From positions 1,364,001 through 1,428,000 of the forward strand of contig NZ_CP012669.1 of NCBI RefSeq assembly GCF_001281485.1: 64,000 nucleotides of DNA. Direction: 5' to 3'. The notes under the pieces were generated by a model. It ran no database searches and was not told the DNA's origin. It saw only the letters and a list, made by a program, of their open reading frames with translations. Position numbers and translations under genes: made by a program. Positions within the stretch are counted from its first letter, which is position 1. Every line of letters begins with the position of its first letter. Source of the DNA: Altererythrobacter epoxidivorans. GTDB taxonomy: Bacteria > Pseudomonadota > Alphaproteobacteria > Sphingomonadales > Sphingomonadaceae. This document shows, in pieces, positions 46,653 through 48,660 of the stretch.

Positions 46653-47438
46653 ATGGCGAGCGCGCCGCAGCCCCAACTGCCTGTTTTCTACAACGACCTC
46701 ATGCCCCTCAACAGCCGCGATCACAAAGGCTGGAAGAGCACGCAGTTAAACGACGCCACATTCTTTGGCACAAGCCATGCTGTTCCGATCACCGTCGAAG
46801 AATTCGTCGATGCGCAGCGTTCGTTCCCGATCGTTTTCACCAGCGGCGAAGGCGCCCTGCCCATCGCTCTGATGGGCCTGAACGAAGGCGTGAACACTTT
46901 CGTCGGCGAAGACGGCAAGCTGACCGAAGATGTGTACGTCCCGGCATACGTCCGTCGCTATCCCTACATGCTGGCACGCCTGCGTCCCGACAGCGACGAT
47001 CTTTCGCTTTGCTTCGACCCGAGCGCCGGCGTTGTCGGTGAATTCGATGAAGGCAACGAGCTTTTCGACGCCGAAGGCAAGCCGACCGAATTCACGAATG
47101 GCGTGATGGAATTCTGCCGCAACTTCGAAGAAGCCGGCGTCCGCACCCAGAACTTCATGGCAGATCTCGCCAAGCACGATCTCCTGATGGACGGCGAAAT
47201 CGCGATCACGCGCAATGACGATCCCGAGCGCCCCTTCGTTTACCGCGGCTTCCGCATGGTCGACGAAAACAAGCTGCGTGAACTTCCGACCGAAGTTCTC
47301 GAAGAGCTGAACAAGAGCGGCGCGTTGATGATGATCCACGCCCATCTTTTCTCGCTCAACCTGATGCGCGTGATCTTTGCCCGCCAATCGGCACAGGGCA
47401 AGATTCCGCAGCCCAACGCAGCACAGCCGGCAGGCTGA
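46653..47438 (+). CDS. SapC family protein
   Basis: A 261-aa cytoplasmic protein with the SapC pattern: PLNSRDHKGWK, PITVEEFVDAQRSFPIVFT, VPAYVRRYPYMLAR and a C-terminal ALMMIHAHLFSLNLMRVI. SapC-family proteins are named from surface-layer export loci but function is uncertain, and in marine alphaproteobacteria they often sit near TonB receptors. Here it stands alone and shows no signal peptide. A good GGAGAG lies before the ATG. Confidence 0.88.
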   Translation: MASAPQPQLPVFYNDLMPLNSRDHKGWKSTQLNDATFFGTSHAVPITVEEFVDAQRSFPIVFTSGEGALPIALMGLNEGVNTFVGEDGKLTEDVYVPAYVRRYPYMLARLRPDSDDLSLCFDPSAGVVGEFDEGNELFDAEGKPTEFTNGVMEFCRNFEEAGVRTQNFMADLAKHDLLMDGEIAITRNDDPERPFVYRGFRMVDENKLRELPTEVLEELNKSGALMMIHAHLFSLNLMRVIFARQSAQGKIPQPNAAQPAG

Positions 47439-47450
47439 TCCGACGCGTTG

Positions 47451-47495
47451 ATCGGATGAGAGGGGCTTGAACGCCCCTCCTCCCGATCCTATTTT
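47451..47495 (+). terminator. Hairpin after sapC, probable terminator
   Basis: Nested arms ATCGG/CCGAT and GAGGGGC/GCCCCTC form a stem-loop followed by CCTATTTTG. It lies 12 bp past the sapC stop. The T-run is weak, so readthrough toward the sRNA candidate is possible. Confidence 0.6.
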
Positions 47496-47527
47496 GAAGA
47501 GGTCAGGTCACGCGCCCCTCATGGCGT

Positions 47528-47601
47528 GGCCCGACTGCACCGAAAGGTGCAATCCTCCCTGAACCTTGGCCACCTCGTGCAGTTGCACGAGGTGGTTTTT
47601 T
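47528..47601 (+). ncRNA. Candidate small RNA, MmgR/alpha-r8-like
   Basis: A compact two-hairpin RNA: hairpin 1 TGCACC-GAAA-GGTGCA (47536-47551, GNRA loop), an unpaired linker containing TCCTCCCTGAACCTTGG, and a strong terminator CCACCTCGTGCA/TGCACGAGGTGG followed by TTTTTT. The linker is an anti-Shine-Dalgarno sequence. Two hairpins flanking an exposed UCCUCCC is the architecture of the alphaproteobacterial alpha-r8 family, whose member MmgR controls polyhydroxybutyrate storage in Sinorhizobium. The neighbouring N-formylglutamate amidohydrolase and cpdR genes match the neighbourhood I recall for mmgR. The 5' end is estimated. Confidence 0.7.
47570..47601 (+). terminator. Rho-independent terminator of the sRNA candidate
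   Basis: A 12-bp perfect stem CCACCTCGTGCA/TGCACGAGGTGG with a 2-nt spacer and six T residues. It is oriented for plus-strand transcripts; the minus-strand side has no T-run, so it does not serve the convergent amidohydrolase gene. Confidence 0.92.
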
Positions 47602-47617
47602 CATATTTGGGGTCAGG

Positions 47618-48565
47618 CTACTCGGCTGCCTGCGCAAAAGGCCCCTTGAGCGAGAGGTTCGCGGTCGCAGCGCCAAGTTCACGCACCAGACCCGCAAGGA
47701 ATCGCGCCAGGGGTTCTAGCCCCGGACCCGGCTCCAACATTTGCGCATCGAGATATATCGACCGGCAAATCTCCAGCTGGATGGCATGGAGCCCACGCTG
47801 GGGTGCCGCGTGCCGATCGAGCACATAACCACCCGAATAGGGTCGGTTGTGTGCGACTGGCCGGTTGCCGGCTTCGATATAGGACAATGCACGCTCGACG
47901 ATGCCGTTGTCGCATGATGCTCCGAAGCGGTCACCCATTACGATATGTGCCGGCCGTTCCGCGCCGAAGCGCGGCTTCAGGGGCGGCATCGAATGCATGT
48001 CGATGAGGAGGGCTGCGCCCCAATCGTCGCGGATCTTCTCCAGGTGTCGCGCCAGTGCGGAATGATATGGACGGTGCACACTCGAGATACGCGCCTGGAG
48101 GTCGGAATTGTCGACCGGCCCCCGCCAGATCTCCCCCGATTGGGGCAATCGACGGGGTACCAGGCCGAGGCCGCTGCGCGCCCTGCGATTGGCGTGCGAA
48201 TGCCGCGATACGGGCGGCCTGGCACCTGCGACCATCTCCCAATCCACATCGTCCTTCGCCCGGTTGAGATCGATCATCGCGCGCGGTGCATTCGCGACCA
48301 GCAGGGCTGCACCTGTCAGCCTGGCGACTTCCCTTGCGAGTATATCGACCTTGCGATCTTCGAGACGCGATGCCGCAAGCTCGGGCTGGCGCATGTTCGA
48401 TAGGAGGTTGGCCGGATACTCCCGCCCTGCATGCGGGACTGCGATGAGGACGGGCAATGGCAGATGTACCGGCATTTCGAGGGTATATGCCTGAGCTTCG
48501 CAGCCGGGGATTGCCCCGCCCTGCTCGATCCGCGAATCGCGGCGGTCACCCTCGGCATCTGTCAT
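47618..48565 (-). CDS. N-formylglutamate amidohydrolase family protein
   Basis: A 315-aa hydrolase. VLIAVPHAGREYP, APRAMIDLNRAKDDVDWE, DNSDLQARISSVHRPYHSAL and LLIDMHSMPP are hallmark segments, with several His/Asp/Glu residues suited to metal binding. The family releases glutamate or acts as an N-acyl-amino-acid hydrolase in histidine breakdown; no hut genes are nearby, so the physiological role is open. MTDAEGD is the most likely start; a TTG further upstream is less likely. Confidence 0.82.
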   Translation of the reverse strand: MTDAEGDRRDSRIEQGGAIPGCEAQAYTLEMPVHLPLPVLIAVPHAGREYPANLLSNMRQPELAASRLEDRKVDILAREVARLTGAALLVANAPRAMIDLNRAKDDVDWEMVAGARPPVSRHSHANRRARSGLGLVPRRLPQSGEIWRGPVDNSDLQARISSVHRPYHSALARHLEKIRDDWGAALLIDMHSMPPLKPRFGAERPAHIVMGDRFGASCDNGIVERALSYIEAGNRPVAHNRPYSGGYVLDRHAAPQRGLHAIQLEICRSIYLDAQMLEPGPGLEPLARFLAGLVRELGAATANLSLKGPFAQAAE

Positions 48566-48660
48566 GACGTCATTGCTGCCTGTAAGACGGTTGTGTGTCA
48601 AAGCTGGCCATGGGCTAACTCAAAATGCTTTCTTAAAACAATCGGCGTATTGGCAGGTCC

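What the first reader, a model, noticed from the sequence alone, without database searches (positions are those of the whole stretch)
47528..47601. Candidate MmgR/alpha-r8-type anti-Shine-Dalgarno small RNA
Two stable hairpins, the second a strong terminator, flank an unpaired UCCUCCC-UGAACCUUGG linker complementary to ribosome-binding sites. Architecture and neighbouring genes match alpha-r8 sRNAs as I recall them. If confirmed it extends the family to this genome and implies control of carbon storage.
Basis: partly seen in the sequence, partly recalled or inferred. Interest (0 to 1): 0.7.

Follow-up and report, generated by a model that had tools for sequence, protein, structure and literature searches.

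The report
Sphingomonad relative of MmgR small RNA
The window encodes a conserved, probably independently transcribed small RNA of about 100 bases that looks built to block ribosome-binding sites; it is a divergent sphingomonad version of a known regulatory RNA family and scores below the standard database model's threshold.

Summary
A sigma70-like promoter (TTGAAC-17 nt-TATTTT, 47467-47495) lies upstream, its -35 box in the loop of a hairpin after sapC.

Rfam's MmgR/alpha-r8 model gives only 15.9 bits (gathering 41). Yet this is the alpha-r8 locus: the RNA lies convergent to the FGase gene, as over-threshold alpha-r8 hits do in 17 of 24 genomes of sister families. A model built from 26 relatives matches 213 of 249 family genomes and also canonical alpha-r8 RNAs (up to 39.3 bits). 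Stem-loops 1 and 2 covary.

This genome's over-threshold alpha-r8 hit is another locus. The window RNA is best read as a divergent positional orthologue, apparently lost three times in its genus. Anti-SD repression is inferred from SisA and Sphingopyxis SuhB; control of carbon storage is possible but unshown.

The parts
47460..47479 (+). Hairpin GAGGGGC-TTGAAC-GCCCCTC just downstream of sapC, carrying the -35 box in its loop
   Evidence: Read from sequence. TTGAA is invariant in 11 of 11 aligned genus orthologues and present in a 12th. Its role as the SapC terminator is inferred.
47467..47472 (+). -35 box TTGAAC
47490..47495 (+). -10 box TATTTT, 17 nt after the -35
   Evidence: In the orthologues my script read the -10 at a fixed 17-nt spacing; 9 of 12 then begin with TA, 3 do not (TTAAAT, AAATCT, CATCTT).
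47502..47601 (+). Predicted small RNA, about 100 nt, alpha-r8-like, three stem-loops
   Evidence: Fold -53.3 kcal/mol; own model R1 85.2 bits at 47501-47601 (the window is one of its 26 training rows); R1 matches in 213 of 249 family genomes
47502..47535 (+). Stem-loop 1; C/U-rich loop GCCCCUCAUG at 47514-47523
   Evidence: 12 of 13 pairs with both-sided changes; CCCTCAT invariant in 26 of 26 rows of A6, a set chosen to share this loop type
47536..47551 (+). Stem-loop 2 TGCACC-GAAA-GGTGCA
   Evidence: 5 of 7 pairs with both-sided changes
47552..47567 (+). Unpaired linker AUCCUCCCUGAACCUU with the anti-Shine-Dalgarno core UCCUCCCU
   Evidence: conserved in genus rows and named genomes (these were found by a pattern that includes part of the linker and of the terminator arm)
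47568..47601 (+). Rho-independent terminator GGCCACCUCGUGC-AGUU-GCACGAGGUGG plus U run
46653..47438 (+). SapC family protein, upstream neighbour
   Evidence: PF07277, 236 bits
47618..48601 (-). N-formylglutamate amidohydrolase (FGase), convergent neighbour
   Evidence: PF05013, 210 bits
48661..49050 (+). Single-domain response regulator (CpdR-like: name recalled)
   Evidence: PF00072

Best explanation
This is a free-standing, trans-acting small RNA gene: the Sphingomonadaceae positional orthologue of the FGase-linked alpha-r8 RNA (MmgR in Sinorhizobium, SisA in Caulobacter), diverged enough to fall below Rfam's threshold. Shown by comparison: it is conserved with a promoter-like element, three stem-loops (two supported by covariation), a conserved linker and a terminator, at the alpha-r8 locus. 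Inferred: it is transcribed from about 47502 and ends in the U run, which binds Hfq. The linker UCCUCCCUGAACCUU pairs with purine-rich ribosome-binding sites of several mRNAs and blocks translation or triggers decay, as reported for SisA and for Sphingopyxis SuhB. The C/U-rich loop of stem-loop 1 is a probable second contact site. Which mRNAs are targets, and whether PHB or carbon use is affected, is unknown.
For: Synteny: an over-cut-off RF00519 hit lies convergent to FGase, within 800 nt, in 17 of 24 genomes of other families (coordinates compared by eye); same arrangement here. Reciprocal similarity: R1 hits all 7 over-threshold alpha-r8 sources of other families that I gave it (6 distinct RNAs; L013/L042 39.3 and L019 35.4 are FGase-linked; L018 33.4, L015 30.4, L014 29.5, L021 24.9) and 2 of 4 sub-threshold ones (L037 31.6, L038 24.8) (linkage). 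RF00519 hits FGase-linked orthologues of the family at 39.1, 33.1, 32.3, 30.5, 29.6, 28.7, 25.5 and 24.1 bits. Covariation 0.312 versus 0.189 shuffled, 0 of 500 as high. R1 matches in 213 of 249 family genomes, 81 of 91 genera. TTGAA in 12 of 12 genus orthologues at a similar distance. Hfq is present. Mechanism by analogy: SisA represses through its 10-mer with Hfq (PMC12559287, passages); SuhB of Sphingopyxis granuli binds the thnR 5' UTR with Hfq (PMC6563040, passages).
Against: No transcript evidence was available. RF00519 gathering score not met here or in any of the 16 FGase-linked RNAs of the family scored by cmscan; 7 of them give no RF00519 hit within E 1. Other families' models also touch such RNAs below threshold (isrB 32.2 and SorY 25.3 bits in L086). 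R1 misses two sub-threshold suhB hits of other families (L039, L040) and the second locus type. Two of ten core letters differ from the published 10-mer. In 6 of 12 genus minimum-energy folds part of the core is paired. The RNA is absent at 14 of 30 FGase loci of the genus, so it is dispensable there. The pairing test gave no clear target.
Confidence: 0.8

Rival explanations
1. It is an independent anti-Shine-Dalgarno RNA, closer to the alpha-r14/AbcR type with C/U-rich loops, that came to lie beside FGase by chance or by replacement of the original alpha-r8 gene.
For: The best Rfam hit of the window is ar14 (20.2 bits versus suhB 15.9), spanning the whole predicted RNA; two anti-SD-like sites recall AbcR (described in PMC7143759, passages). 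The published alpha-r8 10-mer is not complete. isrB and SorY also reach 32.2 and 25.3 bits in L086.
Against: Both Rfam scores of the window are far below threshold (58.8 and 41). Eight FGase-linked orthologues score 24-39 bits with suhB, and the sources gave no ar14 hit within E 1. R1 hits canonical FGase-linked alpha-r8. Same position and orientation as alpha-r8.
Confidence: 0.12
2. It is a processed 3' UTR fragment or read-through product of the sapC mRNA rather than a gene with its own promoter.
For: It follows sapC on the same strand (sapC ends at 47438), and the -35 box overlaps the hairpin after sapC. The -10 box is loose in 3 of 12 genus orthologues.
Against: TTGAA is kept in 12 of 12 genus orthologues, and a hairpin resembling a terminator lies between sapC and the RNA. 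The alpha-r8 RNA beside FGase in L042 has no SapC within the 10 kb fetched.
Confidence: 0.12
3. Only the terminator matters; the conserved stretch is a plain terminator of sapC or a transcription barrier towards FGase.
For: In the 14 of 30 genus loci without an R1 match, several show a simple GC-rich hairpin with a T run in its place (by eye).
Against: Conserved, mostly unpaired linker; covariation in two further hairpins; promoter-like element.
Confidence: 0.05

Closest known systems
alpha-r8 / MmgR (Rfam RF00519 suhB), Sinorhizobium meliloti
   Same: UCCUCCCU core after a hairpin, terminator, FGase-linked family locus; a putative sigma70 promoter was deduced for sm8 (PMC2573895, passages)
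   Different: RF00519 score 15.9 versus 41; AA in place of the first UU of the 10-mer; about 100 nt (predicted) instead of 77 nt (PMC7143759, passages); C/U-rich loop in the 5' stem-loop and a long, little-varying terminator stem
SisA-D, Caulobacter crescentus (PMC12559287; passages, part of the abstract included)
   Same: SisA lies downstream of FGase; anti-SD core; several alpha-R8 siblings in one genome; Hfq-bound repressor, sponged by CrfA
   Different: SisA-D have the full UUUCCUCCCU behind a weak hairpin; no sponge was looked for here
SuhB of Sphingopyxis granuli TFA (PMC6563040, passages)
   Same: Sphingomonad RNA of the same name as the Rfam family; Hfq-dependent repression of thnR translation; linked to growth rate and PHB status
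   Different: 61 nt; its locus was not identified here. It may correspond to the second, over-threshold locus type (CCUCUCCC core) rather than to this one: inference only
alpha-r14 / NfeR1 (RF02344)
   Same: C/U-rich loop in stem-loop 1
   Different: 20.2 versus 58.8 bits; a better, still sub-threshold ar14 candidate exists elsewhere in this genome (35.5 bits)

Membership tests
alpha-r8 (MmgR/SisA) | Rfam RF00519 gathering score, 41 bits | tested here: not met
   15.9 bits; 0 of 16 FGase-linked RNAs of the family scored by cmscan reach it (window; 7; 8)
alpha-r8 (MmgR/SisA) | Single-stranded 10-mer UUUCCUCCCU (PMC12559287) | tested here: not met
   AAUCCUCCCU: 8 of 10 kept; UCCUCCCU is unpaired in the window's fold
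alpha-r8 (MmgR/SisA) | Hairpin directly upstream of the core | tested here: met
   SL2 47536-47551; covaries
alpha-r8 (MmgR/SisA) | Rho-independent terminator | tested here: met
   47568-47601
alpha-r8 (MmgR/SisA) | Family locus beside FGase | tested here: met
   FGase 47618-48601, convergent; 17 of 24 in other families
alpha-r8 (MmgR/SisA) | Similarity in the reverse direction: own model hits canonical members | tested here: met
   24.9-39.3 bits on 7 of 7 over-threshold alpha-r8 sources of other families given (6 distinct RNAs); 2 of 4 sub-threshold ones (L037, L038 hit; L039, L040 not); 0 of 5 sources of the second, over-threshold locus type of the genus (L016, L017, L020, L022, L023)
alpha-r8 (MmgR/SisA) | Hfq association and expression | not testable with these tools
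   Only the presence of an Hfq gene was shown
alpha-r14 | RF02344 gathering score, 58.8 bits | tested here: not met
   20.2 bits

The most novel reading that the evidence does not exclude
In Sphingomonadaceae the FGase-linked alpha-r8 RNA became a two-site regulator: besides the linker, the C/U-rich loop of a covarying 5' stem-loop (CCCUCAU or CCCCCCUUU) is a second, separately conserved targeting or sponge-binding site, giving it a regulon distinct from the second, Rfam-visible alpha-r8-type RNA of the same genome, and making it dispensable in some lineages.
Probability: 0.3. Interest if true: 0.55.

Novelty: new variant of a known kind. Interest (0 to 1): 0.4.

Why it matters
Alpha-r8 RNAs are tied to carbon storage in Sinorhizobium and to the feast-to-famine switch in Caulobacter (passages). 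Sphingomonads are much-studied degraders of pollutants, yet at Rfam's threshold the RNA at the ancestral locus goes unseen in the cases I scored, while another alpha-r8-type RNA is seen. The model here (matches in 81 of 91 genera) would let it be annotated and tested across the family, and the apparent losses in one genus offer natural knock-outs.

Tried and rejected
Rejected: that the window copy passes the MmgR model; that 47528 is the 5' end; that the genome's over-threshold suhB hit is this locus (it is C1:2747170-2747244; core CAUCCUCUCCC).

Led nowhere or of limited weight: MAFFT on 12 genus RNAs aligned the 5' hairpins badly, so RNAalifold found only the terminator. For the pair counts I re-aligned 26 rows of one loop type (A6: 23 of the 73 non-redundant sequences, plus the window and two genus rows). 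I left out other rows of that loop type whose hairpins have other lengths or aligned less well (L030, L097, L101, L104, L113, L126, L128, L165, L174 and others), so the percentage of paired cells flatters the structure. The Sphingomonas loop type (A7) was aligned and folded row by row but not pair-counted. The pairing test with start regions (58 background frames, starts guessed): for the linker, a fraction 0.12 of the background pairs as well as the phasin (through an internal start) and 0.50 as well as each phaC; for the loop 0.76, 0.52 and 0.83: not informative. The promoter scan of 101 loci (99 with a candidate, 2 without) is permissive and has no shuffled control; I rely on the 12 genus promoters, where the 17-nt spacing was imposed by my script. 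R1 matches were not checked one by one for FGase. Whether a small peptide is encoded was not tested. Lagares et al. 2016, the distribution study of this family, and Lagares et al. 2017 are not held, so I cannot say whether this sphingomonad form was already listed there.

Full report
What is there. The 74 bases fold at -37.2 kcal/mol against a shuffled mean of -20.5 (z -6.05).

Own promoter. Upstream, TTGAAC (47467-47472) and TATTTT (47490-47495) stand 17 bases apart. TTGAA is invariant in 11 aligned genus orthologues, and a twelfth (G018) has TTGAAG-17-TATTTT. My script read the -10 at a fixed 17-base spacing: 9 of the 12 hexamers begin with TA, 3 do not. The -35 box lies in the loop of a hairpin just after sapC. 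The start site near 47502 is a prediction; no transcript data were available.

Conservation. A 126-base blastn query found a match in 11 of 41 genomes, its own included. Of these, 108 lie next to FGase and/or SapC in the expected order (104 with FGase), and 12 do not, 8 of them near the end of the stored stretch. The record titles include Sphingomonas, Novosphingobium, Erythrobacter, Qipengyuania and Altererythrobacter. Of the 108, 101 were complete enough to use, 73 after removal of near-copies.

Covariation and a model. I chose 26 rows of one loop type (alignment A6), leaving out rows of that type that aligned less well. SL1 has both-sided changes in 12 of 13 pairs, SL2 in 5 of 7, the terminator in 2 of 13 (8 never vary). 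The covariation score is 0.312 against 0.189 shuffled (0 of 500 as high), and sliding the partners by 1-3 columns drops it to 0.103 or less. Model R1 from A6 matches 213 of 249 genomes of the family and 81 of 91 genera at E <= 0.001, 16 of 114 genomes drawn across the class at E <= 0.01 (2 in this family, 14 weaker at 24.8-41.5 bits) and 2 of 120 across the phylum, both in this family. The window and 25 relatives trained the model, so their own scores are not independent.

Relation to alpha-r8. Against membership: RF00519 gives the window 15.9 bits against a gathering score of 41, and ar14 gives 20.2 against 58.8. Of 15 further FGase-linked RNAs of the family that I scored with cmscan, 8 show RF00519 hits of 24.1-39.1 bits and 7 none within E 1; none passes (these 15 are 7 genus loci and 8 of the 120 named stretches, picked by me). 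A further one, G021:C1:2439467-2439558, has 33.9 bits. The published core UUUCCUCCCU (PMC12559287, passages) reads AAUCCUCCCU here. For kinship: in 24 genomes of other families in the order, 17 carry an over-threshold RF00519 hit convergent to FGase within 800 bases, and 7 do not (G025, G029, G032, G035, G037, G053, G058; searches compared by eye). R1 hits all 7 over-threshold alpha-r8 sources of other families given to it (6 distinct RNAs, 24.9-39.3 bits) and 2 of 4 sub-threshold ones. PMC12559287 states that most species carry one alpha-R8 copy beside FGase and that sisA lies downstream of it; sm8/MmgR lies between SMc04042 and SMc04043 (PMC2573895, passages). I therefore call it a divergent positional orthologue and do not file it as a full member.

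A second alpha-r8-type RNA. The best RF00519 hit of this genome is elsewhere: C1:2747170-2747244, 56.1 bits, core CAUCCUCUCCC. Best hits fetched from 20 further genus genomes (16 over the threshold, 4 just under: G004, G009, G018, G052) all show a CCUCUCCCA core before a T run (20 of 20). R1 does not hit this type (L016, L017, L020, L022, L023). Genomes with both types resemble the multi-copy state of Caulobacter SisA-D.

Loss in the genus. Of 37 genus genomes, FGase loci of 30 were fetched; R1 finds the RNA at 16 of these 30. On a quick tree of three neighbouring proteins the presence/absence label needs 3 changes (shuffled mean 10.2), and starred branches force 3. The count cannot tell gain from loss; because the RNA is widespread in the family, I read the changes as losses. 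L067, next to the 12-locus clade without it, keeps a copy with a broken U run (by eye).

How it probably works. The genome has an Hfq gene, two PhaC_N matches and one phasin match. SisA represses mRNAs through its core with Hfq (PMC12559287), and Sphingopyxis SuhB binds the thnR 5' UTR with Hfq (PMC6563040). By analogy the linker here should pair with ribosome-binding sites. In 6 of 12 genus minimum-energy folds the core is wholly unpaired; in 4 (L032, L033, L035, L036) its first bases, and in 2 (L025, L030) more of it, are paired. A pairing test with guessed starts did not single out phaC (a fraction 0.50 of 58 background frames pairs as well) or the phasin (0.12, through an internal start). 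Carbon storage is a reasonable hypothesis, not a result.

Verdict. The finding is real and mostly well read, with a wrong 5' boundary and an unsupported functional claim. It is a family-wide variant, below Rfam's threshold in every case I scored, of a known kind of regulator.

Noticed in passing
G000:C1:2747170-2747244 (L023 5171-5245): Second alpha-r8-type RNA, over Rfam's threshold (56.1 bits), core CAUCCUCUCCC, upstream of a CDC48-type AAA ATPase gene; in G012 the matching locus (L041) has a CoA-transferase gene nearby.
   Followed up: partly
G000:C1:2675008-2675081 (L024 4465-4573): Candidate alpha-r14-like RNA: 35.5 bits with RF02344 (gathering 58.8), hairpin with a C/U-rich loop holding CUCCUCCC.
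   Followed up: partly
G000:C1:1135525-1135950 (L193, L194): Two Hfq matches 237 bases apart, so in one frame, each reported in a 221-aa open frame: probably a tandem-domain Hfq. My attempt to print the protein found nothing.
   Followed up: partly
L067 2491-2600 and the 14 of 30 genus FGase loci without R1 matches: Apparent decay of the RNA (broken U run) beside a clade of 12 loci that lack it.
   Followed up: partly
L037 4996-5078, L038 4999-5076: Further RNAs with a UUUUCCUCCCUGAAC core in another family, with no FGase match to the window's protein in the 10 kb fetched; possible extra alpha-r8 siblings.
   Followed up: no
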